In this document: positions 25,815-55,232 of the stretch, in pieces
Layout of the letters: the number at the start of each line of letters is the position of its first letter
Position numbering within the stretch: the first letter of the stretch is position 1
Assembly: GCA_944389565.1 (NCBI GenBank)
Contig: CALXMV010000013.1
Location: 1-59,520, forward strand
Length of the DNA: 59,520 nt
Direction: 5' to 3'
From: an uncultured Kiritimatiellota bacterium
GTDB lineage: Bacteria > Verrucomicrobiota > Kiritimatiellia > RFP12 > DVOR01
Notes under the pieces: generated by a model
Told to the model about the DNA's origin: nothing
Databases searched by the model: none
What the model saw: the letters and a program-made list of their open reading frames with translations, nothing else
Position numbers and translations under genes: made by a program

Positions 25815-27794
25815 TCAGACGCCGGAGTAGGCGAGGAAGCCGCCGTCGATGGGGAGGACGACGCCGGTGACGAAGGAGGCGTCGTCGGAGAGGAGGTAGC
25901 GGACGGCGCCGCAGAGGTCGGCGGGCTGGCCGAACTTGCGCATGGGGGTTTTGGCGATGACCTTGTTGCCGCGGGGGGTGAGGGTCTTGCCGTCGGGCTC
26001 GAGCATGAGGAAGCGGTTTTGGTTGGTGATGAAGAAGCCCGGGGCGATGGCGTTGACGCGGATGCCCATGGGGGCGAGGTGGGTGGCGAGCCAGCGGGTG
26101 AAGTTGTCGATGGAGGCCTTGGCGGCGGCGTAGGCGGCGACCTTGGTGAGGGGCTGGGTGGCGGCCATGGAGGAGATGTTGAGGATGGCGCCGCCGTCTC
26201 GGAGCATGGCCTTGGCGAAGACCTGGGAGGGGAGGAGGGTGCCGATGAAGTTGAGGCGGTTGACGAACTCGAAGCCTTCGATGTCGAGGCCGAAGAAGGT
26301 GTCCTCGGGCTTGGCGTCGGGGGTCATCTGCTCGGCGGGGCAGGTGCCTTTGGGGTGGTTGCCGCCGGCGCCGTTGATGAGGATGTCGATGCGGCCCCAT
26401 TTGGCGAGGATGGCGTCGCGCGCGGCCTCGAGGGAGGCGCGGTCGAGGACGTTGGCGGCGAGGGGGAGGGTGTCGGCGAGGCCTTTGGCGGCGAGCTCCC
26501 GGGCGAAGGCGGAGGCCTTGTCGCCGTGGAGGTCGAGGAGGGCGACCTTGGCGCCGTGGCGGAGGAGGTCCTCGGTCATGACGGAGCAGAGGACGCCCGC
26601 CGCGCCGGTGACGACGCAGACCTTGCCGTCGAGGTCGGAGCCGTGGATGAGGCCGTATTCGAGGCCGCGGAGCTCGGCGAGGCCGACGAGGCGCCCGCCG
26701 TAGGAGTAGCCGCTGTAGCAGGTGCGGCCCTTGTCGATCTCCATGAGGCGGCCGTGGTCGGGGCGGACGACGATCGGCTCGCCGCGGCGGGCCTCCTCGT
26801 CGAGGAGCAGGCGCATGAGGCGGGGCATGTCGACCTTGCCGGTGAGGTGGCAGCCGGATTCGTGGAAGGTGCCGCCCTCGGCGTAGACGACGTTTCGGAA
26901 GTGGACGAAGTGGACGCGGTGGGCGAACTCGCGGAAGATGGCGACCTCGTCGTTGGCGCGGTTGCCGCCGAGGGAGCCGGTGCAGAGGGTGAGGCCGATG
27001 CAGTCGTAGGGGACGGCCTGGCACATCTGGCGAATGTCGGCGGCGGTGGAGAGGATGCGCGGCAGGCCGAAGAGGGGGCGTGGGGGGTCGTCGGGGTGGA
27101 TGGCCATGCGCACGCCGAGCTCCTGGCAGGTGGGGGCAATGGCGTTGAGGAAGGCGTAGAGGTTGGCGCGGAGCGTGGCGTCGTCGATGGCGGCGTAGCC
27201 GCGCAGGAGGTCGCGGAAGCCCTCGACGGTGAGGTCGTCGACGGTGCCGGGGAGGCCCAGGAGGATGCCCTTGGCCGCGGCGTCGCGCGCGGCGGGGGTG
27301 GCGGCGTCGTACCACGCCTTGGCCTTGGCGCAGAGCGCGGGGCCGTAGGTGGCCTCGGCGCCGGGGCGGCGGAGCATGAAGAGGTCGAAGGCGGCGACCT
27401 GCGTCTCGTCGAAGTTCAGCACGGTCGAGCCGTCGGGCAGGGGGTAGTCCAGCTGGCTGCGCGTCCAGTCGAGGATGGGCATGAAGTTGTAGCAGACGAC
27501 CTTGATGCCGCATTCGGCGAGGTTGCGGAGGGTCTGCCTGTAGTTCTCCACGTAGGTCTCGAAGCCGGGGGCGCGGAGCTTGACGCTCTCGTGCACGGGC
27601 ACGCTTTCGACGACGCTCCATTCCATGCCGGCGGCACGGACCTCGGCCTGGCGCGCGCGGATTTCGCCGACGGGCCAGACCTCGCCGCACTTGCGCTCGT
27701 AGAGGGCGGTCACCACGTCGGTGACGCCCGCCTGTCGGATTTCCCTGAGGGAGATGGCATCCTGCGTGCCGAACCAACGCCAACCTTGCTTCAT
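25815..27794 (-). CDS. Bifunctional mannonate dehydratase-SDR oxidoreductase fusion (UxuA plus fructuronate reductase-like)
   Basis: 659 residues. Residues 1-385 are a UxuA-type mannonate dehydratase (MKQGWRWFG, YNFMPILDWTRS, MAIHPDDPPRPLFGLPRI, FHESGCHLTGKVDM, RPDHGR). From about 386 a short-chain dehydrogenase begins (DGKVCVVTGAAGVLCSV), with the catalytic Ser in NISSMAATQ and YAAAK near 554-558 and the C-terminal VTGVVLPIDGGF. Known SDR-type D-mannonate oxidoreductases (YjmF-like) reduce fructuronate to mannonate; UxuA then dehydrates mannonate to 2-keto-3-deoxygluconate. One polypeptide would thus carry out both consecutive steps and fill the gap between uxaC and kdgK, as no separate uxuB is seen. 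The nucleotide-binding loop has Cys where most SDRs have Gly (GVLC), which I believe is usual in this subgroup. The fused arrangement itself is plain in the sequence. Confidence 0.9.
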   Translation of the reverse strand: MKQGWRWFGTQDAISLREIRQAGVTDVVTALYERKCGEVWPVGEIRARQAEVRAAGMEWSVVESVPVHESVKLRAPGFETYVENYRQTLRNLAECGIKVVCYNFMPILDWTRSQLDYPLPDGSTVLNFDETQVAAFDLFMLRRPGAEATYGPALCAKAKAWYDAATPAARDAAAKGILLGLPGTVDDLTVEGFRDLLRGYAAIDDATLRANLYAFLNAIAPTCQELGVRMAIHPDDPPRPLFGLPRILSTAADIRQMCQAVPYDCIGLTLCTGSLGGNRANDEVAIFREFAHRVHFVHFRNVVYAEGGTFHESGCHLTGKVDMPRLMRLLLDEEARRGEPIVVRPDHGRLMEIDKGRTCYSGYSYGGRLVGLAELRGLEYGLIHGSDLDGKVCVVTGAAGVLCSVMTEDLLRHGAKVALLDLHGDKASAFARELAAKGLADTLPLAANVLDRASLEAARDAILAKWGRIDILINGAGGNHPKGTCPAEQMTPDAKPEDTFFGLDIEGFEFVNRLNFIGTLLPSQVFAKAMLRDGGAILNISSMAATQPLTKVAAYAAAKASIDNFTRWLATHLAPMGIRVNAIAPGFFITNQNRFLMLEPDGKTLTPRGNKVIAKTPMRKFGQPADLCGAVRYLLSDDASFVTGVVLPIDGGFLAYSGV

Positions 27795-37691: not shown

Positions 37692-38173
37692 GCGCGCCCG
37701 AGGCGGAGCCCCCCCACCCCGCCCCCACCACGCACGGCGCCCGCGCCGTGCGTGCCTTCTGCGAAGGCTGCACCTGCGCCCAGGCCGTCCTCGCCACCTG
37801 CGCCCCCGACTGCCCCGGCGGCATCGGCCGCGCCGCCGCCATGCGCCTGGCCTCCGGCCTCGGCGCCGGCCTCGGCGGCCTGCGCGAGACCTGCGGCGCC
37901 GTCCTGGCCATGGCCGCCATCATCGGCCTGCGCCACGGCCCCGGCGAGCCCATGGACGACGCCGCCAAGGCCGCCCTCTACGCGGCGACCCAGGCCGCGG
38001 TGGCCGACTTCGACGCCGCCTTCGGCACCCACTCCTGCCAGGCGCTCCTCGCCGCCGCCGGCATCGCCAAGACCCCCGGCGACCGCCCCGAGCCCCGCAC
38101 CCCAGACTACTACGCCAAGCGCCCCTGCGCCGCCTTCGTCCGCTTCTGCGCCGACCGCGCCATGCGGGCGTGA
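37688..38173 (+). CDS. C_GCAxxG_C_C family redox protein
   Basis: 161 residues. CEGCTCAQAVLATC near the N-terminus, GGLRETCGAVLAMA in the middle and CQALL later match the conserved cysteine pattern of the C_GCAxxG_C_C family, which is found near redox enzymes of anaerobes and thought to bind a metal or act as electron carrier. Starts within the hydrogenase stop (ATGA), so it is translationally coupled and probably works with the hydrogenase. Confidence 0.82.
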   Translation: MSAPEAEPPHPAPTTHGARAVRAFCEGCTCAQAVLATCAPDCPGGIGRAAAMRLASGLGAGLGGLRETCGAVLAMAAIIGLRHGPGEPMDDAAKAALYAATQAAVADFDAAFGTHSCQALLAAAGIAKTPGDRPEPRTPDYYAKRPCAAFVRFCADRAMRA

Positions 38174-38178
38174 CCCCC

Positions 38179-38658
38179 ATGAAAGGCGCCAGGAAGACGA
38201 ACGTCGAGCGCATCCTCGAGGCCGCCGGCGTGCCCCACGCGCCGCACGCCTTCGACGGGCGCGGCGGCCAGGCCGAGGCCGGCGAGATCGCCGCGCAGCT
38301 CGGCCTCCCGCCACACGTCGTCTTCAAGACCCTCGTCACCGAGACCGAACGCCACGAGCCCTACGTCTTTGTCATCCCCGCGGACGGCCGGCTCGACCTC
38401 AAGAAAGCCGCCAAGGCCGCCGGCGTCAAGGCCCTGGCCATGCTGCCCCTGGCCAAACTCTTCCCGCTCACCGGCTACCGCCACGGCGGCTGCTCGCCCC
38501 TGGGCATGAAGCGCCGCCTGCCCACCTTCATCGACGCCTCCGCCGAGGCCCTCCCGGAGATCTACGTCAGCGCCGGGCAGATCGGCCTCAACGTCTCCGT
38601 GCCCCCCCACCCCCTCGCCGCCCTCATCCCCGCCCCCTTCGTCCCCCTCACCCAGTGA
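38179..38658 (+). CDS. YbaK/EbsC-type aminoacyl-tRNA deacylase
   Basis: About 159 residues. Typical Cys-tRNA(Pro) deacylase fold: N-terminal TNVERILEAAGVPHAPHAF, the conserved lysine in PHVVFKTLVTE, DLKKAAKAAGVKAL, and YRHGGCSPLGMKRRLPTFID near the active site. It hydrolyses mischarged tRNA. A GTG at 38170 overlapping the previous stop (GTGA) is an alternative start used elsewhere in this window. It is the last gene before the BREX-like operon; only 33 nt separate them, with a small CGGGGC/GCCCCG hairpin. Confidence 0.88.
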   Translation: MKGARKTNVERILEAAGVPHAPHAFDGRGGQAEAGEIAAQLGLPPHVVFKTLVTETERHEPYVFVIPADGRLDLKKAAKAAGVKALAMLPLAKLFPLTGYRHGGCSPLGMKRRLPTFIDASAEALPEIYVSAGQIGLNVSVPPHPLAALIPAPFVPLTQ

Positions 38659-38691: not shown

Positions 38692-41212
38692 ATGCCAAGG
38701 CATATTGGCGAAATGGAGCGTTACGTGGAAGTGGCACGGTGGAAGCTCGGCCTGACGCCCGGTTTGCCCAAAAAAGAGATTTTGGAAACCGTCGGCGAAC
38801 GCCTCGGTCTCACAGACGAACGGGTCCGGCAGAAAGAGGAGGAGTTGCTCAGCGCGTTGCGGCACGCGTTGGCGCTACGGGGCTCGATGGTGGGGCGGTG
38901 CGGCGAACGCGTCCGGGCGTGGCTGACGAGCGGGGCCGAGGCGATTCCCACGGCGGCGGGTTTGTGCGAGGCGTTGCGGGGCGACTATCCGTGGATGCGG
39001 AGCGAGGGGGACGTCCTGCCGCTTCTGCGATTGCTGCGCATCTGGGAGCCCGCGTGGCCGCTGGGTTGGGGGGCGGACGCGAAGGGGTGCTTCCATGTGT
39101 GGTGGGATCTGCGCGCGACCTTCGGCACGGCGTGGGAGCGGCTTGGGGGGTTCGTGCGGGAGCTCATCGATGGCAAGGCGAAAACGGACACGACACGCCG
39201 CCGCCCGGATATCGCCCGATGGTGCATCGAACAGGAGAAAACCCCCGAGTGGCCACGCATCCGCCTGTTGGCCGAAGTCCTCGGAGGCCTTCCCGGAATG
39301 TCGGCGGAGGATCACGCGGAGGCGTGGGAGACGTTGCGCCTTGACAATCCGGGCCCCAAAAACGACTTCAAGCTGACCTTGCAAAGAATCGGCAAGAAGT
39401 TGGGCAACAACGAGCGAACGGCCGCACGGCGAAAGATGCAAGTCGTGGAGGCGCTGCGCACGTCCGGCGCGATGAACGCCGACGAAATCGCCCAAGCGAC
39501 CGGCATCGAGCCCAATCTGGTTCGGAGCACGCTTTATGCCTTGGAGCGGGAAAAAACGATCCAAATGGTCGGCAACACACGCTACGCGCTGGCCATGCGG
39601 TTGCCCCCAGGGCTTGTGCGCGAAGTCACGGCGTTCCTGCGGCAGCAGTTCGCACGTGGCGGGGTGCGATGCGGGTTCATCCATCAAGCCTATCTGGCTT
39701 TCCGGGGCCAATTGCCGGAGGGTTGCACCCCGAAGCGGTTTTTCGCCGCATTGCGCCACGATCCGGCATTCGAGCTATGCGCAAGCGTCTATCCCTGCGT
39801 CTCCACGTGTTCGGATCTGAGGTCCCGCGGTGACAAGGAGTACGGCGCTCCCTTTTGGAAGCACCTCAACGCCCGCCTGTCCCGGGAACTCCCGATCCCC
39901 TCCGAGCGGATGTCGGAGATCTGGGATTCGTGGTTTGGCGGCGACCCCGTGCAGATGCCCGACAAGTTGACGAAGGCCTTCGGGCTCAGGACCTACAAGT
40001 CCGAGGGCAAGCGCTGGTACGATCGGCCTTCCGAGGTCTCGGGAAGTTTCACGGACGGGGATATGGAGGCCGCGCGGTCTTTCGAGGAGGCGCTCGGCGC
40101 GAGGCCGTTGGATTTCCGCGAGGGGGCCACGCAGATCCCGCTCTTGGAAGGCATGGTCGGCAAGGCGTTCACCCCTGCGGTGCGGGCGGCCCTGCAAACG
40201 CGGATGTTCGAGCGCAGGGACGGATTGTGGCAGACCCTCGCGAGCGTCATGCCGGAGGACGATCAGCGGGCGTTGGCGCGGCAATGCGCGGCATGGCTCG
40301 ATGAGTGGCCGATCGTCACCGTGGCGCGGCTCGCGGAAGGCCATCCCGGGATGGACGCGCGTTGCCTGCGGCGCGTGTTCGAGCGGCACGCGCCCGGCCG
40401 GATCGACGTGCGGGAGGAGCTGTGCATCCGCCCCGGCCGGCCGATGTATGAATCCGAGGAGCAAATGGCGCGAAGCGTGGTGGAGGAACTGCGACGCTCC
40501 GGCGGCGCACAGGCCATCGCGAAACTGACCGCGCGCTTCCCGAACGTCGACGCGGAGTGGCTGACCATCCGTTTCCCGGAACTGTGCGGAAAGCTTGGGG
40601 TCGCATGCGTCACCGAGGGCAACGCCGTCCTGATCCCGCCCGACGAGGTGCCCGGGGACGTGGCGGGGGCCCTCGGGGAGGACCCGGCCGAACGTCACTT
40701 CGCGGACGTGGCGGCGGCCGTGGCCGAAAGCTGCGGCGAACGCTCCCCGGAGGCCTTCCTGAACATCTATTTCCAGGACAGCGCGGCGTTGTTCCGGCGC
40801 TTTGCGGAATTGGAGGACCCCCATGAACGCACGTGGCGCGGGGAGGTGCTCGGGGCATCCAACCTCTCGCTGTCGGATCTGGCGGCCAAGTTGCGGCAAC
40901 CTTTCACCTTCGAGGAGTTTGGCGCGGCCGGACGGCGCCTGTGCGGGTGGACGCGCGATGGCAACCGCACCGCCCTCGCACGGGTGTGCCTGCGCCTGGA
41001 CGAGGATCTTTGGATGACGCCGGCGGCCTTCCGCGCGGCCGTGGGGTGGGACGACGGGCTGGCCGCGCGAATCGCCGCGCGCCTCCGTATGTTCCATCGA
41101 GGGTGCGCTGGATTTCATCGTCGACGGGGTGCGCGTGCGCATGATGCGCACGGAGGCGCTCCGCAAGCGCGTGGCCGCCTGTTTCGGTAAAAACAACCCA
41201 CCAGGGACATAA
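38692..41212 (+). CDS. Large HTH-containing protein at the head of the BREX operon; C-terminus frameshifted
   Basis: I do not recognise this protein. The open frame as read is 832 residues, ending at 41190. Residues about 27-58 (ILETVGERLGLTDERVRQKE) resemble a sigma-70 region 4 helix-turn-helix, and around 260-310 there is a winged-helix-like segment (MNADEIAQATGIEPNLVRST ... IQMVGNTRYAL). The rest is helical, with no enzyme motif seen. Near 41080-41100 the coding signal changes frame: the +1 frame reads EGALDFIVDGVRVRMMRTEA and stops at TAA 41210-41212, 3 nt before the brxP ATG, which looks like the original end. Restoring one base would give about 839 residues. The gene sits so tightly before brxP that it is part of the defence operon; a regulatory or DNA-binding role is only a guess. 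Confidence 0.6.
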
Positions 41213-41215
41213 AAG

Positions 41216-43066
41216 ATGTACGCGTACGAATGGGACACGGGTACAGGCGGTTACGCGTTGGGCACGGACACGGCCGAGTTCGTGGCCGCCGAGATCCGCC
41301 CGGTTTACGCGGAGGAGATGACCGCGCTGGGGTTCGACCGCCATTTCGTCTTCGACGCGGCGGAACGGCGGCCGCTCTGCTGGGCGCGCCAAACCGTTTA
41401 TCTGGCGCAGGGGCGGGAGATCGCGCGCCTGGCGGAGGCGGCCTACGGCAAACCGATCCGCGTGGCCTTCGTGGCGCCGGAGGGCATGGCCCTCCGGCCG
41501 GTTGATATCGGGGCGATGGCGGCCGACCCTCGGAACATAAGGCAGATGGACGCGCTCGTCGCCTCCACGCAACGCCGGCTGAAAGCCATCTACGACGCTT
41601 ACGCCGCACGGTGCGACCTCGCCTACATCGCCTTCTCCGGCGGGAAGGACTCCGCGGCGCTCCTGGATCTCTGCCACCGCACGTTGCCTTTCACCGTCCC
41701 CGTGGTCTTCGCGGAAACAGGGATGGACCTGCCCGGGACGGACGCCGTCTGGGAGGAGGCCCGGCAGCGCTACCCGGAGCGCACCTTCATCCGTGCCCAA
41801 GCCACGCACGAGGCGATCGCGGACTGGGAGCTGTTCGGGCCGCCCTCGCAGAAATTGCGGTGGTGCTGCACGGTGCGCAAGAGTGCGCCGACGATCTCGT
41901 GCCTGCGGCGGTTCGTCGGCAAATCCGACGCGCGGTTCCTCGCGTTCGTCGGGGTGCGGGGCGAGGAGAGCGCACGCCGCGCCGCCTACGCGGATGTCTC
42001 GGAGGGGGGCAAGAGCGGCAACCAGGTGAACGCCATGCCCCTCCTGGCCTGGGGGGCGCACGAGATCTTTCTGTATGCCTTCAGGCACGGTCTGCCCCTG
42101 CACCCGGCCTACCGCCAAGGGATGCCACGCGTGGGGTGCGTGGTTTGCCCGATGGCCACGCTCCGGCAGACCCTGACGCTCCGGCGGCTCTTCCCCGAGG
42201 AGACCGGGCGCTTCGAGAAGACCATCGCCGAGGCGTTCGACCGCGCGTTCGCCGACGCGGATGACCGGACGCGCTACGTCGTGGAGGGTGGGTGGCGGAC
42301 GCGCTGCAGCGGGCAATCGCTCCATCTCGCGCAGGAACCCCCGGAATGCAGGGCCCATGCGGACGGGAGCCTGACGCTCGCCGCACCGGCGTTGGACGCG
42401 GCACGCTTCCTGGAATGGGCCAAGACCGTCGGCTCGCCGACGGAGAGCCGGTGGGAGGCGGGGCATGGCGCCATGCGCCTCGTCTTGCCGGACGGCACGC
42501 CGATCCGCGCGGAGGCGCGCCAAGGCACGGCCCATATCGCGCCGTTGGACGGCCATCCCCTCAGCCGGGGGGCCGTGAAGGCGCTGAAAGGCGTGGCCGC
42601 CAAGGCGATGGCGTGCGTGTGCTGCGGGGCGTGCGCCGCGGAGTGCCCCGCCGGCGCGATCGCCCACGAAAACGGGGTGGCGCGGATCGACGCCATGCGA
42701 TGCACCCGGTGCGGCCGTTGCCATGCCTGGCAGGACGGCTGTCTCCGCTTCCACTCGATCCGTTACGCAGGAGGGACCTCAATGGAACTGAAGGGGATCA
42801 ACAAGTACAACACGTTTGGCCTGAGGCCGGAGTGGGTCCACGTCCTGACGGAGACGCGCGAGGCGTTCGGCGAGACGACCCGATTGGGCAACAAGATGAT
42901 CCCGTCGGCCAAGGCCTGGTTCCGCGAGGCGGGGCTGACCGTGCCCGGGGCGGGCACCGTGCCGACGGGGCTGGCCGAGGTCGCGGCACGGCGCGGCAAG
43001 CGCGACACCGGGCTGTGGGAGGCGATCTGGATGGCGCTGGCGAACCGCTCGCCGCTGGTGCGATGA
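41216..43066 (+). CDS. brxP: BrxP: PAPS reductase domain, ferredoxin domain and first part of a DUF4007-like domain
   Basis: 616 residues. The N-terminal ~120 residues are unrecognised. A PAPS reductase/N-type ATP pyrophosphatase P-loop follows (YIAFSGGKDSAALLDL at about 141), as in DndC and BREX type 4 BrxP. Then come RVGCVVCPMATL and, near 466-505, two cysteine clusters (CVCCGACAAECP, CTRCGRC) of a [4Fe-4S] ferredoxin. From about 522 there is a DUF4007-like start (YNTFGLRPEWVHVLTE, LGNKMIPSAKAWFREAGL) that is cut by TGA at 43064-43066. The next codons continue the domain in the same frame. BrxP-family proteins are thought to transfer sulfur, perhaps to nucleic acid, but the reaction in type 4 BREX is not settled. 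The next segment is described separately. Confidence 0.82.
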   Translation: MYAYEWDTGTGGYALGTDTAEFVAAEIRPVYAEEMTALGFDRHFVFDAAERRPLCWARQTVYLAQGREIARLAEAAYGKPIRVAFVAPEGMALRPVDIGAMAADPRNIRQMDALVASTQRRLKAIYDAYAARCDLAYIAFSGGKDSAALLDLCHRTLPFTVPVVFAETGMDLPGTDAVWEEARQRYPERTFIRAQATHEAIADWELFGPPSQKLRWCCTVRKSAPTISCLRRFVGKSDARFLAFVGVRGEESARRAAYADVSEGGKSGNQVNAMPLLAWGAHEIFLYAFRHGLPLHPAYRQGMPRVGCVVCPMATLRQTLTLRRLFPEETGRFEKTIAEAFDRAFADADDRTRYVVEGGWRTRCSGQSLHLAQEPPECRAHADGSLTLAAPALDAARFLEWAKTVGSPTESRWEAGHGAMRLVLPDGTPIRAEARQGTAHIAPLDGHPLSRGAVKALKGVAAKAMACVCCGACAAECPAGAIAHENGVARIDAMRCTRCGRCHAWQDGCLRFHSIRYAGGTSMELKGINKYNTFGLRPEWVHVLTETREAFGETTRLGNKMIPSAKAWFREAGLTVPGAGTVPTGLAEVAARRGKRDTGLWEAIWMALANRSPLVR

Positions 43067-43567
43067 TGGTTCGTGAAGGCCGCGCCGATCGGCCAACGGA
43101 TGACGCAAGACGCGCTGCGCGACCGTCTGGAGGCCGACGGCGTGGCCTCGCCTTCCGTGCGGCGCGGCGCGCTGAACGCGCTCTGCGGCCTGCTGAAGGA
43201 GTCGCCGCTCGGCGTGGAGGGGCATCCGCTCGCGGCCGAGGTCGCCCGCCGCGGGCGGAACGTGGAGGCGCTGACGCGTCTGGCGCGTGAGCCCCAGGAG
43301 GATTGGGCCTTGCTCTTCGGGCTTTTCGTCATGGCGGAGGCGGCGGGGCGGAGCGCCTTCACGCTCTCCTCGCTCGATGGCTCGGAGCCCTTTGTCTCCC
43401 CGCTGGAGGCATTCGGGATGACGCCCCGCGCGCTCGCGAAGCGTTGCCGCGGGCTGGAGGCGCGCCATGGCGCGTTCATCCGCTGCTCGTTCACGCACGG
43501 GCTGGACGAGATCCGTTTGCTGACGCAGGACAAAACGCTGGACGACGTGACCTTTTTGGCAGAGTGA
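43067..43567 (+). pseudogene. C-terminal part of the BrxP DUF4007-like domain, separated by an in-frame TGA
   Basis: The frame of brxP continues directly after the TGA as WFVKAAPIGQRMTQDALRDR and runs 166 codons to a stop at 43567. The content is helical and ends LLTQDKTLDDVTFLAE, as expected for the end of a DUF4007 domain. The join reads CGA-TGA-TGG, with a tandem ATGATG; loss of one ATG triplet would fuse the two parts (LVR-WFVKAA) without any other change. A GTG at 43073 could allow re-initiation, giving a separate 165-residue product. Thus this may be a disrupted gene end or a natural split. brxC starts 16 nt downstream. Confidence 0.6.
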
Positions 43568-43582
43568 GGAAGGAGAAACGCG

Positions 43583-46500
43583 ATGAGCCAAGTCGAACAT
43601 TACTCGGATTGTCTGACCCCCAACCCCGCATTTCGGCCGGTGATGACGGCGGAGGGGCTGGAGGGGACGGCGTGGTGGGAGAACTTCCTGCCGCATCGAT
43701 CGTTCGTGAAGACGCTGGAGGCGCTTTTCGCCGCGTTTGACCGCAAGCTGCGCTCGGTGTGGATCTCCGGCGCCTATGGCACCGGCAAAAGCCATGCGGC
43801 GCTGGTCATCCAAAAGCTGCTGATGGATGACGCGGAGCACGTGCGGCGATTCTGCGAGGCCAACGCCGAGCGCCTGGGCGAGGTCGTCCCACGGCATCTG
43901 CGGCGGTGGCGCGGCGAAGGCACGCAGGCGAAGCGGACGTTGGTGATCTACGAATACGGGTCCGACACCGTGCGCGAGCCCTGCCATCTGCTCTACCGCA
44001 TCGCGCGTGCCATCGCCGAGGCCTGCCAGCGTGAGGGCCTGACGATCCCCGCGCACAATGACATCGACGCGTTGGCCCAGACCGTCCAGGATTGCGAGGC
44101 CGCCTTTTTCCGTGCGTGCCGGGACGACGATTCGCTCTCGCTCATCGCCTTGCAGGGCATCGGCGACTGCGAAACGCTGCGGAAGCGCCTCCGGGATGGC
44201 GCCGACGCGGAGCGGTTGGTGGGCGAGGTCCTGCGCGTTCTGTTCGCGATCGGGTATGTGAGAGACCTGGAGGTCGGGAGACTCTTGGCATGGGTCGGGA
44301 AGATCCTCGGGGCGAACCCAGGGTGGGGGCGCGTGCTCTTCCTGTGGGACGAGTTCTCCGATTACGTCCGGAACGCCACGGGAGGGAATCTGAAGACCTT
44401 CGAGGCGCTCGCGGAAAACGATGCGCTGAAGGCCAACTTCTTCTTCGTCCCCATCACCCATCTCTCCGCCGAGACATTCAGGAAGTCGGGCACGGGGAAC
44501 GCCGGGAAAACCGTCGGCCGCTATGAGCCCTGCCCCATCGAGATCCCCGCCAGCCAAGTCTACGCGCTCGGGGCGAAGGCCCTCCTCGTCTCGGACCCCC
44601 AAAAGTGGGGACGGTGCCAGGCGCTGCTTTGGACCCCGGCCATCGAAAGACTGGTGAGGGACGATATCATCCCGGCCGCCGGGAGCGACGCCTCGAACGA
44701 TCTGCGGCCCGAGGAGTTCCGTTCGCTCCTGCCGCTGCATCCGATGTGCGCGAGCCTGCTGTGCGCGCTGGCCAAAAACGTGGGCTCGAACCAACGCAGC
44801 TTTTTCGATTATCTCTGCCAACCCGGCACAGGCGGCTTCCAGCGCTTCCTGCGCGAAGGCGGCACGGCCGTGGCAGGCAAGCAATATGCCACCGTCGACA
44901 ATCTGTGGGACTATTTCGCGGAAAACCCCGTGATGGATCTGGACGGCGACCGCGGGCTCCGGGAGATCCACGACGACTACCGGCTCCATGCCCAGGGCCT
45001 CTCGTCCCAAGAGGCACGCGTGCTCAAGGCGGTCTTGCTGCTCTGCCTGGTGGCACCGCGCGGCACCGCGCCGCAACCCCTGCTCGCCCCCACCACGGAG
45101 AACGTCTGCCGCGCCTTCCGGGGCGACGGGATGCTCGACGGGACGACGCAGGCGACCTTGCGCGCGCTGGAGGAGAAGCGCTGCCTCGGCATCCTCCCGG
45201 ATGGGACCATCGTCCGAAACGACAACCGCATGGACGTGGATCTCGCGAAATACACCGACGACAAGCGTTTCGCCGAGGGGCCATTCTCGGGGAAGAGAAG
45301 GCCGAAGGGCTCCTGAAAAACGCATTGCGTGACGCGTGCGACAGCGAAATCGACCCGGAACGCCTGGATATCCACGTTATCGACGGCAACGGGTTCAACC
45401 CCTCGCGTATACATTTCGACAAAAGCGAGGGTTTCGCGATCGGGGTCTACTGCCTGCTGTTTTGCGACCCCCAAACCGCCGCCTCGGCGGAAAAGCGGAT
45501 GCGGCAGGTGGCCGACGCGATGAAGGGCCGGCACATTATCCTGCTCGCATTCACGGCGGAAACCTTTTGCTCGGAGAATCCCAAGGCGTGGGTGGATTTC
45601 TGCTCGGACTGGGCACAGTCGGACGCCCGCACGGGCGCCATGGCGCAACAGGCTTCCACCTACGGCACCCGTGTCAAACGGGCCATCGAACGCTGGGTGG
45701 AGAGGCTGAGGCAGTCCGCGCGGATTCTGATCCTGACCCCGGACGACACGCTCGGCCAGGAGGAGCCAATCCCGACCTGCGCATTCACGGTCTTGGGAAA
45801 ACGCTTGGCCCGGTGGCAGACGCGTTGGTTCCCGGGTAGCCCCGAATCCTATGACCAAGGCACCCCTACCATCCGGAAAAACAAGGGGCTGGCGACTTGG
45901 GCCCTGGGCAGCCGCTTCCGCGAATCGCCCGACCTCAGGCAGGGGATCCAGGCCTGCCTGACGCCCTCCAGCGTTGAGGACGCCTTCGACGCTTACCTCA
46001 AAACCCACGCCACGGACTTGATGGCCCTGGCCGAGAGGGTCGAGGATCGGACGCAGGAATACCGTGAGGCCATCAAGGCCCGATGCGCGCGGGACGCCGG
46101 GTGGCTCTGGACGGAAAGCGACCTCGGCACCGCCGTGAGATCCGTGCTGAGGCGTTATCGCGCGCTGGAGATCATCCGCGACCTCTGCGCCATCAAGGGC
46201 TGGCTAACCCTTGACGACGCCCGCGCCCGCCTGCTCCGCACGCTCACGCAAGACTGCGCGCTTCCCCTTGACCTTTTGTCGGATCGCTGCGCCTTCATCG
46301 CCCCTTTGGCCGAACTGCTCAGGGCGCCAGGGCCTTTGGACGACGATCAAACGGGCACGCTCCTGAACGGGCTGGAAAACAATCGTCCCACCCTCAAGGC
46401 CATCCTCCACGACCCGTTGGGGCCGGACGGCCTCTCCACCCTCCGCAACGCGCTGGGGCCCGCCGCCGACAACGCCAATGATGCGACGATCCGCTCCGTC

Positions 46501-46710
46501 ATCCACGCCCTCCCCGCGGAAACGCGGCAAAACCGGCAGACGTTCGTGAAGGCGGTCGCGGACAAGATCTCGGCCGTCCCACGCGAGGCGATCGAGGCCA
46601 GCCTCGCGGCGATGGATGCGGAAGCGGCCAAGAGAACGCTCCAGGCGTGCGCCTTGGCGTTCCCCGAGGTCGCGCGATGGCTGCTCGCGAAAACCAAGGA
46701 GGCGAGATAA
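43583..46710 (+). pseudogene. brxC: BrxC-like P-loop ATPase, interrupted by a frameshift
   Basis: The first open part (43583-45316) has Walker A VWISGAYGTGKSHAALVI near residue 65 and Walker B RVLFLWDEFSDYV near 250, typical of the large BrxC/PglY ATPase of BREX. At about 45277-45281 (GAG GGG CCA) the coding frame moves back one base: frame one reads DKRFAEGPFSGKRRPKGS and stops, while the other frame continues DKRFAEG-AILGEEKAEGLLKNALR and runs to 46710. A one-base loss in a GGGG(G) tract, or -1 slippage, would explain it. The repaired protein would be about 1,042 residues. pglZ starts 3 nt after the stop. If not corrected, ATPase activity may remain but the C-terminal half is lost. Confidence 0.8.
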
Positions 46711-46713
46711 GCC

Positions 46714-48888
46714 ATGGAAGTCGCCCCCGATGATCTGCGCGGACGATTGGGCGCCGGCCTTGCCGAGACGCTCTCCCTCGCGCTCGTCGTTCCCGACCGC
46801 GAGCGTTCCCGCACGGTCGCGACATGCCTCGGCGAGGCCTTCGAGCGCCTGAGCGTCCGTGCCTTGCTTCGCGAGGAGGAGGCCTTTCTCCCCTCGCCCG
46901 CGACGCTCTTCGAACGCCTGAAAAAACGGCGTGGGGACGCCGCCGCCCAAAAACGCCACTTGCTCGTCCTTGGCCTCGACGCCTACCTGGCGCTGCTCGA
47001 CGAGCCCCTGCAACGCGAATGCCTGGGGCTCGTGGCCGCGTGGCTGCGCGACGCGATGGGGCCGGATGCCACGTGTTTCCTCTTCCGCCACCGCTGGCCC
47101 GGATTGCTCGACGCGGCCACGAATCCTCGGGCGCGCCAAGGCATCCTCGCCGTCCCACCCCCACCCGATGGGGCGGAGGACTTCGCGCGGACGACCTTCC
47201 TGCTTCTCCCGGAAGACCCGGCGATCCTGCGCCTGCCCCGATGCCGCCCCCTGCCGCAATGGCTGGACGCGATGGCGGAAGGCGAGGCGCTTCCGCCGGA
47301 TGGCGCGCCCATCCGCCTGACCTTCCCGCTCGGCGGCCGCCGCCTGCCCGTTTTCTCCATGCATCGCGTGACCCAATGTCCGACCGCGGCGGCCGCGCTT
47401 GCCGCGCTCCAGAATTGGGCGGCGCCCGAGTTCTCCGAGGAGGCCGCCAGGCAGACCTTCGAGGAAGGGCTCGCGGGGCTCGGCGGGGCGGCGTTCGCCA
47501 AAGCCCTGGGCGAACGCTTTCTGCCGGATGGCGTGGACGCCCGCGTTCTGGAGCGCTTCGAGGCGTTGCGGACGGAGGCCGACCAGGAGCGTTTCCTCTG
47601 GGTGCTCCGCCATCTCGCCAAACCGGGCACCTACCTCGCCGATGTCCTCGCCGAGGGGGCGTGCGGCTTGGCGGGCAGGCACGCCTTCCCGAAACGCTAC
47701 ATCCAGGTCCCCCAAGCCTTGCTCGACGCCCCGATCTCCGCCTGTCACGCGAAAGCCGGCGAACGCCGTCTCGCGATCCAGACGCTCGGCGTGAACAAAC
47801 CCTTCGTGCAGAACGCGCTCACACGTTTCCTGAGGGAACGCCTGCGCGATCTGCCCGCCGAGAAAGCCGCGCTGTGGCTCGGCTTCGAGAGCGAGGCCGA
47901 GGACGTCGAATGGCTCCGGCGGGCCATCGCCGGGGATTGCCGCGCATACGCCAACAGCGGGCTGCTCCGTGATTACCGCGCGCCTTTCCCGCCAAACATC
48001 CCCCAGGCCATCCGCGCCTATCTCGATGATTACCGCGGCGCCAAGTGCGCCGACAGCGTCCCCGAGGCGTTCATCGCGCAGGCATGCGGCAACCCCGCGC
48101 TCGACGCGCTCGAGGATGCCGAGAGCCGTTCGGCGCGCCTCCTGGACTGGCGGGACGACCCCACCTGCATGCTGGGCGTCATCGACGCGCTGGGCGCGGA
48201 ATACATCCCGTTCCTCATCCAGAGGATCCAGGAGGCCGGCTTCTCCGTGCAGGCCGAGGTCGTCCGCGGGCTCCTGCCCACCGACACCGCGCGCAACGAC
48301 GTCAGTGCCGAATGGGGGGCGGCGCGTTACAGGAAACTGAACGATCTCGACAAGCTGCTGCACGAGATCCCGGAGCGGCAGGAAGGGGAGCAAAAGCCCG
48401 ACGCGGAAACCGTCGCGACGACTTTCGTCTCGATCCTTCGCACCGTGGAGAGAACCGCGCTCGCCTTGCTGCGCCAGGCGTTCCGCGGCGGCCACAAGCG
48501 TGTCGTCATCACCAGCGACCACGGCACCACCCGTTTCGCCACGCTCGCCTGGCAATCCCACCCCGAGTCCGTCCGGACCATCGGCGCCGACGCCTTGGCC
48601 GCCGCCGGGCTGGCGCCCTGCGGCTGGCGCATGGCCGAATGCCGGGAAACGGGTGGCCGGGATGCGGCATGGGTGAAATCCCCGGATGGACGGTTCGTCT
48701 CCATCCGCGGCTACGACCGCTTCTCGTGCCAGGGTGGCTTGGGGTTCGAGGCCCACGGCGGCGCCACGCTGGAGGAGCGCGCGGTGCCGCTCCTCGTCGT
48801 CGTCCAGGGCGACGCGGTGGCGGGACCGGCCGACAACCCCCAACCCGACCGCCGGCAGATCACGGAAGACGAGGATTTCGACATCTGA
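46714..48888 (+). CDS. pglZ: PglZ, alkaline-phosphatase-superfamily BREX protein
   Basis: 724 residues. The C-terminal third carries the alkaline phosphatase-superfamily metal motif VVITSDHGTTRFA (about 597-609), with LIQRIQEAGFSVQAEVVRGL and a later VKSPDGRFVSIRGYDRFSC. PglZ is the gene present in every BREX type and is required for defence; metal-dependent nuclease or phosphatase activity is proposed. The reading frame is intact. It lies 3 nt downstream of brxC and 14 nt upstream of brxL. Confidence 0.88.
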   Translation: MEVAPDDLRGRLGAGLAETLSLALVVPDRERSRTVATCLGEAFERLSVRALLREEEAFLPSPATLFERLKKRRGDAAAQKRHLLVLGLDAYLALLDEPLQRECLGLVAAWLRDAMGPDATCFLFRHRWPGLLDAATNPRARQGILAVPPPPDGAEDFARTTFLLLPEDPAILRLPRCRPLPQWLDAMAEGEALPPDGAPIRLTFPLGGRRLPVFSMHRVTQCPTAAAALAALQNWAAPEFSEEAARQTFEEGLAGLGGAAFAKALGERFLPDGVDARVLERFEALRTEADQERFLWVLRHLAKPGTYLADVLAEGACGLAGRHAFPKRYIQVPQALLDAPISACHAKAGERRLAIQTLGVNKPFVQNALTRFLRERLRDLPAEKAALWLGFESEAEDVEWLRRAIAGDCRAYANSGLLRDYRAPFPPNIPQAIRAYLDDYRGAKCADSVPEAFIAQACGNPALDALEDAESRSARLLDWRDDPTCMLGVIDALGAEYIPFLIQRIQEAGFSVQAEVVRGLLPTDTARNDVSAEWGAARYRKLNDLDKLLHEIPERQEGEQKPDAETVATTFVSILRTVERTALALLRQAFRGGHKRVVITSDHGTTRFATLAWQSHPESVRTIGADALAAAGLAPCGWRMAECRETGGRDAAWVKSPDGRFVSIRGYDRFSCQGGLGFEAHGGATLEERAVPLLVVVQGDAVAGPADNPQPDRRQITEDEDFDI

Positions 48889-48902
48889 GGAACCCCCCTA
48901 TC

Positions 48903-50342
48903 ATGGACACGAACAAACTCCGCACGGTCTTCCCCGAGACCACCGTGCTCAAGCGCCGAAACATCGTGGATCTTTTCAAAAGCGCCAACACGCCTTCCTT
49001 CCTGCGCGACTGGATCCTGCGGCGGAAGGCCAACGCCTCGGGGGAGATTCCCGACCCCGGGGCGCTGGGCGACTATATCCGCACCATCATCCCCGCGCAA
49101 AAGGAGACGCTGACCATCCAGGGCGAGGCCCGCGAGGGTGAGTCCCGGAAATTCCTGGCCAAAATCGACATCGTCTTCGACCCGAAGACCGACCGCTACA
49201 CCTTTGAGATTGCCGACCTCGGCCTCACGCACGCCCAAACGCTCATCGAGGACTATATCTGGGAGCGGATCCGCGGCGAGGTCGAGCGCACCGCCGGCGG
49301 CTGGGGGCTGGTCCGCCTCGGCTACGCCCCGCCCTCCGCGCAAAACGCGCGGGACGGCCGCTTCACGCTCCTGAGCTACAAGAGCTTCCGCCCCTACGCC
49401 ATCGACCTCTCGGCCTTCCGCGAGGCCCGGCACGCCTTCGACGTGGAGGAATGGATCGACGTCCTCCTCGGCGCCATCGACCTCAATCCCGCCGGTTACG
49501 CCGACCTCCGGCAGAAGCACACCCTGCTCACGCGCCTGCTGCCCTTCGTCGAGCCCCGGCTCAACCTCATCGAGCTCGCGCCGAAGGGGACCGGGAAGAG
49601 CTACCTCTTCGGCCAGGTCGGGAAATATGGGTGGCTCGTCAGCGGCGGGGTGCTCACCCGCGCCAAAATGTTTTACGACCTCGCGCGCAGACATCGGGGC
49701 CTCGTCGCCACCCACGACTTCGTCGCGCTCGACGAGATCCAGTCCATGCGCTTCCCCGAGATCGGCGAGATGCAGGGCGCGCTCAAGGCTTACATGGAGT
49801 CCGGCGAGGCGACCTTCGGCACGGTCCAGGTCACCGGCGAGGCCGGCATCCTGCTCCTTGGAAACATCGACATCGAGCGCCAACGCTCGGACGTCGACAT
49901 GTTTCTGGGCCTGCCCTCCATTTTCCATGAATCCGCGCTCCTCGACCGTTTCCACGGCTTCATCCGCGGCATCGACATCCCCCGCATGACCCCTGCCCTG
50001 CGCGCCGACGGATGGGCGCTCAACACGGAGTACTTCTGCGAGATCATGCACCTCCTCCGCGCCGACACCCTCGCCTACCGCGCCGTCGTCGAGGATCTGG
50101 TCGAATACCCGAAAACCGCGGACACGCGCGACACGGAGGCCGTCCTGCGCATCGCCACCGCGTATCTCAAGCTGCTTTTCCCGCACGCGTGCGTCACGGG
50201 GGTCGTCGCCCCGGAGGCGTTCCGCCGCCATTGCCTCGAACCCGCCGTCGCGATGCGCACGACCATCCGCCGGCAGCTTCAGATCCTCGACCCGAAAGAG
50301 TTCGGGGGCAAGGAGATGGCGCCGTACGCCGTCCGCGGCTGA
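48903..50342 (+). CDS. brxL: BrxL, Lon-like AAA+ BREX protein (short form)
   Basis: 479 residues. Walker A ELAPKGTGKSYLFGQ (about 226) and Walker B HDFVALDEIQSM (about 275), with sensor region GILLLGNIDIERQRSD, match the AAA+ core of BrxL. The C-terminal Lon protease domain seen in the ~680-residue BrxL of type 1 BREX is not present; the shorter TIGR02688-like form is known and, as I recall, accompanies other types. Start ATG 48903 opens MDTNKLRTVFPE; 10 nt after its stop a convergent gene ends. Intact, and the last gene of the operon. Confidence 0.88.
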   Translation: MDTNKLRTVFPETTVLKRRNIVDLFKSANTPSFLRDWILRRKANASGEIPDPGALGDYIRTIIPAQKETLTIQGEAREGESRKFLAKIDIVFDPKTDRYTFEIADLGLTHAQTLIEDYIWERIRGEVERTAGGWGLVRLGYAPPSAQNARDGRFTLLSYKSFRPYAIDLSAFREARHAFDVEEWIDVLLGAIDLNPAGYADLRQKHTLLTRLLPFVEPRLNLIELAPKGTGKSYLFGQVGKYGWLVSGGVLTRAKMFYDLARRHRGLVATHDFVALDEIQSMRFPEIGEMQGALKAYMESGEATFGTVQVTGEAGILLLGNIDIERQRSDVDMFLGLPSIFHESALLDRFHGFIRGIDIPRMTPALRADGWALNTEYFCEIMHLLRADTLAYRAVVEDLVEYPKTADTRDTEAVLRIATAYLKLLFPHACVTGVVAPEAFRRHCLEPAVAMRTTIRRQLQILDPKEFGGKEMAPYAVRG

Positions 50343-50351
50343 CGGGACGGG

Positions 50352-51917
50352 TCAGGGGCGGCGGAGCTCGAGGATGACGAGGCGGTGGACGGCGCGTGAG
50401 ATGGCGGTGTAGCGGGCGGCGCGGTCCCAGGCGGGGTCGTCGGAGAGGTCGAGGAGGATGAGGATGGGGGCTTCGAGGCCCTTGAACTTGCGGTAGGTGT
50501 AGTAGCGCACGCCGGGGTGGCGGGCGAGGGTGGCGTCGAGCGACATGCGGCCGAGGACGTGCGCGCCGATGAGGATGACGTCGTCGGGGGGGACGCCCTC
50601 GCGGAGGAGGAGGCGGTCGAGGATGGCGTCGAGGCGGGCGCGGAGGCCGGGCACGGAGTCGGCGCGGTAGGTCTCCACGCCCTCGCCGGGCGGGGCCTCG
50701 GGCAGGGGGCTGGCGGCGGGGGGCGCGTAGGGGCGGAGGGCCTCGAAGACGGCGCGGGTGTTGCGGCAGTTGACGGTGAGGACGGCCTCGGGCCAGGGGA
50801 AGGCGGGGAGGGCGGAGAGGTCGCGACGGAAGATGTTCTGCCCGGGGTCGTAGAAGACGACGAATTGGGCGTCGGGGTGGGCGATGGCCTTGACGGCGGC
50901 CCAAAGGTCGGGGGAGAAGTCCTGCCCCTCGTCGACGATGACGGCGTCGTAGGCGCGGCGCTCGCCGAGGGCGCGGGCGAGGGGCAGGGCGTCGCGGGCG
51001 AGGGCGTGCCAGAACCCGCGCGAGCCGTCGTCCGTGCGGCCGAGGAGGTGGGCGAAGAGCTCGTTGACGGCCTCGGCGCGGACGCCGGGGAGGTCGGCGA
51101 CGAGGGCCTTGAGGCGTTCGGCCAGGAGGAGGTTGTAGCAGAGGAGGAGGACGCGTTTGCCGCGCGCGGCGAGGAGTTGGGCGCGGCGGAGGGCGAGGAA
51201 GGTCTTGCCGCTGCCGGCCACGCCGCGGACGCGCAGGCGGGGGAAGTCGTCGAAGGCGCCGAAGGCGAGGGCCTGCTCGTGGGTGAGACGGGCGAGACGG
51301 GCGTCGGCCAGGGTGCGGCGCGTCTCCCAGCCGGGGCGGAAGGCGAGGGCGGGGGTGAGAAGGGCGTCGAGGCGGGCGACGGGGAGTGGCTCGGGGGCGG
51401 CGGGGCGGCCCAGGGCCGCGAGGATGCGCAGGAGGGGTGGCTCGGGGTCGAGGAGGTCCTCGCCGTAGAGGGTGATGCCGGCGAGGTCGGGCGGCTCGGC
51501 GGCGGGGCGGCCGGCGAAGGGGAGCCAGACGGCATGGGCCAAGGGCCAGGGGAAGCCATCGAGCCGCAGCCCGCGGCGGAGGCCGGTCAGGAGGGCGTGG
51601 CGGTTGCGGCAGGCCTGCATGGCCGGGCTTTCGCGGAGGCGGCGGCCGTCCTGGAACCATTGGCCGTCGCGGCAGGCGAGGGCGCCGCCTTTGACCTCGA
51701 TGACGAGGAGCCCGTGGCGGGGGTGGGCGAGGAGGAAGTCGATCTCGCCCTCGGTGCCGCCGCCGGCGGCGGGCCCGGAGTAGGCGAGCGCCCACCAGAC
51801 GCGCCAGGGCGCGGCGAGGCCACGGGCGAGGGCCTCGTAGACGGCGCGCTCGGACTGGGGCCCGGGGCCGAAGACCGGGGGCCGGAGGATTGGAGGGAGC
51901 GGGTGGGCGGCGTTCAC
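50352..51917 (-). CDS. NERD-domain UvrD/SF1-type helicase-nuclease
   Basis: 521 residues. An N-terminal NERD-like nuclease domain (SERAVYEAL, GEIDFLLAHPRHGLLVIEVK, with the E-I-D ... E-V-K arrangement) is followed by a superfamily 1 helicase: Walker A VRGVAGSGKTFLALRRA (about 232), DEGQDFSPDLW (about 327), and a C-terminal UvrD-C2 part (YYTYRKFKGLEAPILILLDL, YTAISRAVHRLVI). GTG 51917 overlaps the pyrD stop as GTGA. DNA repair or defence functions are both known for such fusions. It is the last gene of the FMN-riboswitch operon, convergent with brxL. Confidence 0.85.
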   Translation of the reverse strand: MNAAHPLPPILRPPVFGPGPQSERAVYEALARGLAAPWRVWWALAYSGPAAGGGTEGEIDFLLAHPRHGLLVIEVKGGALACRDGQWFQDGRRLRESPAMQACRNRHALLTGLRRGLRLDGFPWPLAHAVWLPFAGRPAAEPPDLAGITLYGEDLLDPEPPLLRILAALGRPAAPEPLPVARLDALLTPALAFRPGWETRRTLADARLARLTHEQALAFGAFDDFPRLRVRGVAGSGKTFLALRRAQLLAARGKRVLLLCYNLLLAERLKALVADLPGVRAEAVNELFAHLLGRTDDGSRGFWHALARDALPLARALGERRAYDAVIVDEGQDFSPDLWAAVKAIAHPDAQFVVFYDPGQNIFRRDLSALPAFPWPEAVLTVNCRNTRAVFEALRPYAPPAASPLPEAPPGEGVETYRADSVPGLRARLDAILDRLLLREGVPPDDVILIGAHVLGRMSLDATLARHPGVRYYTYRKFKGLEAPILILLDLSDDPAWDRAARYTAISRAVHRLVILELRRP

Positions 51918-55070: not shown

Positions 55071-55118
55071 GACCAAGCCCTCCGACCTGCACGTCGCCCC
55101 TTCATTCCGGACTTTCAA

Positions 55119-55222
55119 GATAACCGTCGGCCGCGGGCTTCCGCCGCGTCAAGGGCGCGCCACCCGGCGCACCCCTCGTGGGCTCTCACCACCGGTCGGG
55201 ATTCGCACCCAGCCCTGAGGCA
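55119..55222 (-). promoter_or_regulatory. FMN riboswitch (RFN element)
   Basis: On the minus strand the leader reads CCTCAGGGCTGGGTGCGAAT, then CCCGACCGGTGGTGAGAGCCC, and later GGAAGCCCGCGGCCGACGG. These are the conserved junction blocks of the RFN element (TCAGGGCxGGGTGxAAxTCCC, ACCGGCGGT, AGCCC, GGAxxCCGxxGCCGACGG). It lies 48 nt upstream of ribBA and would lower rib operon expression when FMN is high. Confidence 0.93.
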
Positions 55223-55232
55223 ACGCCCCCCA

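What the first reader, a model, noticed from the sequence alone, without database searches (positions are those of the whole stretch)
38692..50342. Type 4 BREX-like defence operon with an extra large HTH gene at its head
The sequence shows PAPS reductase/ferredoxin (BrxP), BrxC-like ATPase, PglZ and BrxL in order, which fits type 4 BREX as described in the literature. The leading ~839-residue protein with a sigma-4-like HTH and a winged helix is so tightly linked (3 nt) that it should belong to the system, yet I cannot name it. It may be a regulator or a new component.
Basis: partly seen in the sequence, partly recalled or inferred. Interest (0 to 1): 0.7.

Follow-up and report, generated by a model that had tools for sequence, protein, structure and literature searches.

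The report
Broken phage-defence operon with shuffled reader
A gut bacterium carries a damaged copy of a known anti-phage system (type 4 BREX), and the large unnamed DNA-binding protein at its head turns out to be a recurring, fast-shuffling partner of that system that curated lists do not name.

Summary
The locus is a type 4 BREX operon in a Kiritimatiellae genome: brxP, brxC, pglZ and brxL, all hit by PADLOC models. In this genome it is probably dead. The leader ends in a frameshift at ~41,093 and lacks ~105 residues found in relatives. brxP has an in-frame TGA. brxC is frameshifted and lacks ~235 internal and ~130 C-terminal residues. pglZ and brxL look intact. The unnamed leader is a real member of the system. 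In 8 of 11 type 4 loci that I collected, a 635-978-residue relative lies upstream of brxP: directly in seven (gap <=25 nt or overlapping), after one intervening gene in the eighth. Only one relative was found away from BREX. The leaders share a C-terminal ~450-residue module (low-confidence models suggest tandem winged helices). Their N-terminal heads are swapped: RNA-polymerase alpha-CTD repeats, a sigma-4 HTH, a zinc ribbon, phage-integrase SAM-like domains, a HARE-HTH. The three loci without a leader form one BrxP/BrxL clade. My best explanation is a polymorphic DNA-reading or sensing subunit that docks on the BREX complex through its C-terminal module. An operon regulator is the main rival. 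The main text of the 2026 BREX survey does not describe it; its supplements and the type 4 study could not be read.

The parts
38170..38658 (+). Host ybaK (tRNA_edit) gene; left edge of the island
   Evidence: Pfam tRNA_edit 3.8e-24; 70-87% protein identity to ybaK of 9 same-genus genomes; in the fetched relatives the nucleotide match ends at or a few tens of nt before the ybaK stop
38692..41190 (+). Leader gene, open frame 832 aa: sigma-70 r4-like HTH (res 31-58), winged helix (243-298), first part of the shared C-terminal module (from ~res 461)
41093..41212 (+). Lesion and true C-terminus of the leader: frame switch at ~41093, +1-frame tail (...ALDFIVDGVRVRMMRTEALRKRVAACF...) to TAA at 41210-41212; ~105 residues present in the G008 relative are missing here
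41216..43066 (+). brxP, first part: PAPS reductase domain, 4Fe-4S cysteines, start of the C-terminal region
   Evidence: PADLOC BrxP 1.5e-174, model 1-612; Pfam PAPS_reduct 2.5e-28
43064..43066 (+). In-frame TGA in brxP, consistent with a 3-nt tandem duplication (cgATGATGg); relatives read SPLIK-WYV without a gap, window SPLVR-stop-WFV
43073..43567 (+). brxP, C-terminal part, in the same frame as the first part
   Evidence: PADLOC BrxP 8.9e-26, model 618-774; 42-43% identical to G158 BrxP residues 618-780
43583..45316 (+). brxC, N-terminal frame, Walker A GAYGTGKS
   Evidence: PADLOC BrxC 1.8e-91, alignment
45276..45286 (+). Frameshift in brxC
45287..46710 (+). brxC, C-terminal frame; lacks ~235 residues at ~45905 and ~130 near the C-terminus against four relatives
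   Evidence: PADLOC BrxC 1.7e-19, alignment
46714..48888 (+). pglZ, 724 aa, full length; conserved blocks DALGAEY, LPT, SDHG, GG.TLEE
   Evidence: PADLOC PglZ 9.4e-53; NCBIfam BREX_PglZ_4 5.7e-32 at 111 bits, below its 140-bit cut-off
48903..50342 (+). brxL, 479 aa, full length, Walker A APKGTGKS
   Evidence: PADLOC BrxL 1e-195; Pfam BrxL_ATPase 2.3e-105; 61% identical to G302 BrxL
50352..51893 (-). NERD-domain superfamily 1 helicase, converging with brxL; host-like codon usage, probably right-hand neighbour and not part of the system
   Evidence: Pfam NERD 1.6e-10, AAA_19

Best explanation
A horizontally acquired type 4 (phosphorothioate-type) BREX operon headed by an extra core-like subunit. 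Inferred mechanism: the leader binds DNA with its exchangeable N-terminal HTH-type heads (possibly DNA marked by transcription, given its RNA-polymerase alpha-CTD and sigma-4 modules). It docks through its conserved C-terminal winged-helix array on the BrxP-BrxC-PglZ complex, and so decides where the complex modifies host DNA or recognises phage DNA. Shown: the homology, the recurrent position next to brxP, stop-start overlap with brxP in several loci, head swapping over a constant C-terminus, co-inheritance with one part of the BrxP/BrxL tree. Inferred: DNA binding, docking, role in specificity or sensing. In this genome the operon is decaying and most likely inactive.
For: Type 4 components. 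Leader upstream of brxP in 8 of 11 loci, overlapping the brxP start by 1 nt in G302, G064, G083 and L148. C-terminal module shared: G008 E 5e-166, G158 E 2e-20, G302 E 6e-7; group A against group B profile E 3e-5 over 431 columns; L148 leader to G340 leader E 8e-52. Heads differ: alpha-CTD x3 and sigma-4 in G008, HARE-HTH and integrase SAM-like in L045, integrase SAM-like 9.9e-12 in L148, zinc-ribbon-like in G302. Module rare outside BREX. Loci without leader form one clade in BrxP and BrxL trees. Lesions. Foreign codon usage.
Against: Three type 4 loci lack the leader, so it is not essential to the type. One same-genus genome has a full-length relative without BREX. AlphaFold models are low confidence (pLDDT 47 and 57). 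Identity between leaders is 15-25%, and the L045 link is weak (local hhalign E 0.003). In G158 one gene sits between leader and brxP.
Confidence: 0.5

Rival explanations
1. The leader is a transcriptional regulator of its own operon, comparable in role (not in sequence) to the WYL protein BrxR of type I BREX.
For: HTH-rich, first gene of the operon, sigma-4 and alpha-CTD modules; regulators often precede defence operons (BrxR, PMC9122589, listed).
Against: 635-978 residues is very large for a regulator; its stop overlaps or nearly touches brxP in most loci, which suggests co-production as a subunit; heads are exchanged while the C-terminus is kept, whereas a local regulator has one operator to read; no WYL domain.
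Confidence: 0.27
2. The leader is an independent companion defence or anti-anti-defence gene that travels with type 4 BREX, as its orphan in G008 suggests.
For: Orphan full-length relative in a genome without BREX; absent from the Methanosphaera, G340:C4 and L149 loci; an unrelated AlbA_2/HATPase_c_4-like gene is inserted next to it in G158.
Against: Only one orphan against eight BREX-linked copies; no catalytic domain found in any library; leader presence follows the BrxP/BrxL tree.
Confidence: 0.15
3. The lesions are assembly or sequencing errors of a metagenome-derived genome and the operon is intact and active.
For: Draft genome in 72 contigs; reads were not available to check.
Against: Both frame switches of the 59.5-kb window fall in the operon; missing blocks of ~105, ~235 and ~130 residues are not typical base-calling errors; the window BrxP branch is 2.4 times longer than that of its sister G158 (0.82 against 0.34).
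Confidence: 0.15

Closest known systems
Type 4 BREX (brxPCZL), phosphorothioate-based
   Same: BrxP (PAPS reductase + 4Fe-4S + C-terminal region), BrxC, PglZ and BrxL in the same order (PMC12839542 section 34; PMC11931770)
   Different: Extra large HTH protein at the head; no cysteine desulfurase was identified next to brxL in the window (present in G083, G302, G340:C56, L045 and L148); three genes broken
PglW of type 2 BREX (C-terminal half)
   Same: An RNA-polymerase-alpha-CTD-like domain followed by several wHTH modules (PMC12839542 section 23); the G008 relative matches the PADLOC PglW model at 4.2e-9 over this part, the G302 relative at 2.3e-3
   Different: No kinase or NERD domain in any leader; the window's leader gave no PglW match; alpha-CTD or sigma-4 pieces alone gave none
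BrxA / DUF4007 (SspB-like) DNA-binding component
   Same: Predicted multi-wHTH DNA-binding role in BREX (PMC12839542 section 20)
   Different: Type 4 already carries this module as the C-terminal part of BrxP; no sequence match of the leader to it was found
BrxR, WYL regulator of type I BREX
   Same: HTH protein near the head of a BREX operon
   Different: No WYL domain; much larger (size of BrxR from my own knowledge); abuts brxP
MzaA (MZA defence system sigma-70-like protein)
   Same: Sigma-4-like HTH in a large defence-linked protein
   Different: Match limited to ~40-50 residues of the HTH (E 0.06)

Membership tests
Type 4 BREX | BrxP: PAPS reductase with ferredoxin-type cysteines and C-terminal DUF4007-like part | tested here: met
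   PADLOC BrxP 1.5e-174 and 8.9e-26 on the two halves, PAPS_reduct 2.5e-28; split by an in-frame TGA
Type 4 BREX | BrxC ATPase of the type 4 kind | tested here: met
   PADLOC PDLC02480 1.8e-91, Walker A kept; gene frameshifted with ~365 residues missing
Type 4 BREX | PglZ of the type 4 kind | tested here: met
   PADLOC PDLC02550 9.4e-53; NCBIfam BREX_PglZ_4 5.7e-32 but below its own cut-off (111 of 140 bits)
Type 4 BREX | BrxL | tested here: met
   PADLOC 1e-195, TIGR02688 above cut-off
Type 4 BREX | Gene order P-C-Z-L on one strand | tested here: met
   coordinates assignments
Type 4 BREX | Linked cysteine desulfurase (56% of taxa in PMC12839542) | tested here: inconclusive
   The gene next to brxL in the window is a NERD helicase; present downstream of brxL in G083, G302 and G340:C56 and, by length and N-terminal sequence, in L045 and L148; the rest of the genome was not searched
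Type 4 BREX | Phosphorothioate in host DNA and phage protection | not testable with these tools
   Needs mass spectrometry or nanopore data and phage challenge
PglW | Ser/Thr/Tyr kinase domain | tested here: not met
   No kinase match in leaders of the window, G008, G158, G083, G302, G340, L045, L148
PglW | alpha-CTD followed by wHTH modules | tested here: inconclusive
   Strong only in G008 (RNA_pol_A_CTD 3e-24, PglW model 4.2e-9), not in the window
Leader family (defined here) | Shared C-terminal module encoded upstream of brxP | tested here: met
   8 loci, directly upstream in seven and with one gene between in G158; absent at G340:C4, Methanosphaera pNP174 and L149; orphan in G008
BrxR (WYL regulator) | WYL domain | tested here: not met
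   No WYL match in Pfam scans

The most novel reading that the evidence does not exclude
The leader is the missing target-recognition or phage-sensing subunit of one large branch of type 4 BREX, built like a cassette: a constant winged-helix docking module with exchangeable DNA-binding heads taken from RNA polymerase, integrases and regulators, so that phosphorothioate BREX changes specificity by swapping heads.
Probability: 0.3. Interest if true: 0.75.

Novelty: new variant of a known kind. Interest (0 to 1): 0.55.

Why it matters
How phosphorothioate BREX chooses its DNA sites is open: it has no methyltransferase with a recognition domain. A recurrent, head-swapping DNA-binding subunit whose gene abuts or overlaps brxP is a direct candidate for that function and can be tested by deletion and head exchange. 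The window also shows a BREX locus in decay, with the first three genes damaged and the last two still open.

Tried and rejected
Pfam PglZ (PF08665) does not detect this PglZ at all; PADLOC and NCBIfam models do. A PglW search of the phylum appeared to return only protein-kinase-region matches and was useless for the question. PglW kinship of the window's leader was considered and not accepted: no kinase, and no match by the window protein or by the separate alpha-CTD and sigma-4 pieces. Plasmid searches with the leaders found nothing. Viral-contig scans with the leader found nothing except the contig already known. AlphaFold models of the leader and of the C-terminal module are weak (pLDDT 47 and 57). 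Their PDB matches are winged-helix arrays such as UFL1, RNA polymerase III subunit RPC3, SelB and cullin WHB, at Z 5-7, which only suggests tandem winged helices. The idea that the in-frame TGA is recoded was dropped: relatives have no residue at that place and it looks like a 3-nt duplication. Solved-structure search found only RNA polymerase alpha-CTD for the G008 head. A weak BrxP-like match in G049 (E 6e-79, model 23-519) had no recognisable brxC, pglZ or brxL nearby and was not counted.

Full report
**Where it is.** The window is one whole contig (59,520 bases) of a 2.26-Mb draft genome. Named records of two related loci are Kiritimatiellae metagenome-assembled genomes. The operon runs on the + strand from 38,692 to 50,342. 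On its left lies host DNA: the hydA-ybaK block is kept in same-genus genomes, and the nucleotide match runs to the ybaK stop or to a few tens of bases before it. What follows ybaK differs between the relatives. Codon usage of the operon is much less host-like than that of its neighbours: log-odds of about 0.05 per base in the leader and 0.15 in brxL, against about 0.2 in host genes. That points to horizontal acquisition.

**What it contains.** PADLOC models identify BrxP, BrxC, PglZ and BrxL in that order. Pfam and NCBIfam agree where they have models; Pfam's PglZ model itself does not see this PglZ. This is type 4 BREX, the brxPCZL system that makes phosphorothioate DNA (PMC11931770, PMC12839542 section 34).

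**The operon is damaged.** The leader's frame changes near 41,093. The G008 relative has ~105 more residues there, including the block PFFAFSQIT...LPSLCGELAWTSEL, and then the same C-terminal tail that the window carries in the +1 frame. brxP has an in-frame TGA at 43,064, where relatives read straight through (SPLIK-WYV in G158); the local sequence cgATGATGg suggests a 3-base duplication. brxC is frameshifted near 45,280 and lacks about 235 residues in the middle and about 130 near the end against four relatives. A codon-usage scan of all 59.5 kb finds two frame switches, both inside the operon. The operon is 20% of the window, so if the three lesions fell at random all would land there about once in 125 times (my arithmetic). 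The window BrxP also sits on a long branch, 0.82 against 0.34 for its sister. pglZ and brxL are full length with their conserved blocks. I read this as a decaying locus, but no reads were available.

**The leader is a recurrent partner of brxP.** BrxP searches of the order, class and phylum gave six further full type 4 loci; plasmid, viral and phage collections gave four more. A leader lies upstream of brxP in the window (832 aa), G158 (839, one gene in between), G302 (978), G064 and G083 (902/903), G340:C56 (635), L045 (673) and L148 (975). In G302, G064, G083 and L148 its stop overlaps the brxP start by one base; in L045 the gap is 4 bases and in G340:C56 5 bases. It is absent at G340:C4, in Methanosphaera plasmid pNP174 and in L149. 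Those three form one supported clade in both the BrxP and the BrxL tree.

**Are these leaders one family?** Window, G008, G158 and G302 are linked by BLAST over the C-terminal part (E 5e-166, 2e-20, 6e-7). G064/G083, G340:C56 and L148 are linked to each other (E 1.7e-22 and 8e-52). The two groups match as profiles end to end (431 columns, E 3e-5). L045 joins by a short, weaker match at the C-terminus (E 0.003) and by a head domain shared with L148 (E 0.003). The shared part is a ~450-residue C-terminal module; in the window its last part is lost.

**The heads vary.** G008 has three RNA-polymerase alpha-CTD domains (3e-24) and a sigma-70 region 4. The window has the sigma-4 and a winged helix. 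G302 starts with a zinc-ribbon-like segment. L148 has a phage-integrase SAM-like domain (9.9e-12). L045 has a HARE-HTH and an integrase SAM-like domain, both just under cut-off. G158, G064/G083, G302 and G340 share another small N-terminal domain ('NVFLETNLSA...').

**Is it confined to BREX?** A profile of the first group searched in 388 Verrucomicrobiota genomes hit only its own members: G000, G302 and the orphan G008. A profile of the second group in 279 genomes hit only G340:C56. Such two- to four-row profiles miss distant relatives, so this bounds the spread and does not measure it. G008 has the complete leader and no BrxP.

**How it may work.** Shown: homology, position, gene overlap, head exchange, co-inheritance. 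Inferred: the heads bind DNA, the C-terminal module (tandem winged helices by weak models) docks on BrxP-BrxC, and the leader sets where the complex acts. Type 4 BREX already has a BrxA-like DNA-binding part in BrxP (PMC12839542 section 20), so the leader would be a second, variable reader, somewhat as the C-terminal half of PglW is in type 2. The main rival is a regulator of the operon.

**What is known.** The main text of the 2026 BREX survey lists PAPS reductase, DUF4007, BrxC, PglZ, BrxL and cysteine desulfurase for type 4, plus a small zinc-finger HTH protein (PMC12839542 section 34). It does not describe a large leader there. Its supplements and the type 4 study of Yuan et al. could not be read, so novelty of the leader is provisional.

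Noticed in passing
window 10424-22885 (-): A 4,153-residue single gene with a Laminin_G_3 domain and bacterial TSP3 repeats, probably a giant surface protein.
   Followed up: partly
window 2338-4941 (-): An N-acetylneuraminate epimerase-like (NanM/Kelch) domain fused to a sodium:solute symporter in one 867-residue protein.
   Followed up: no
window 25815-27794 (-): UxuA (mannonate dehydratase) fused to a short-chain dehydrogenase in one 659-residue protein.
   Followed up: no
window 55091-55226 (-): FMN riboswitch (Rfam RF00050, 75 bits), on the strand of, and upstream of, the ribBA-like gene.
   Followed up: no
L012 10531-14166 (G008 contig 8): Full-length orphan of the leader family (1,211 aa, three alpha-CTD repeats) in a same-genus genome without brxP.
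   Followed up: partly
L046 2403-5753: Two adjacent BrxP/PAPS-reductase-like genes in a virus-like contig without brxC or pglZ recognised next to them; possibly phage-encoded sulfur-modification genes.
   Followed up: no
L021 7904-8389 and window 38170-38658: A ybaK-like tRNA-editing gene lies just upstream of the leader in two different families (33% identical); chance or a favoured insertion site.
   Followed up: partly
L018 / L023 (G083): The search reported one TAG inside the BrxP match of G083, although the listed open frame covers the gene to 6500; unresolved.
   Followed up: no
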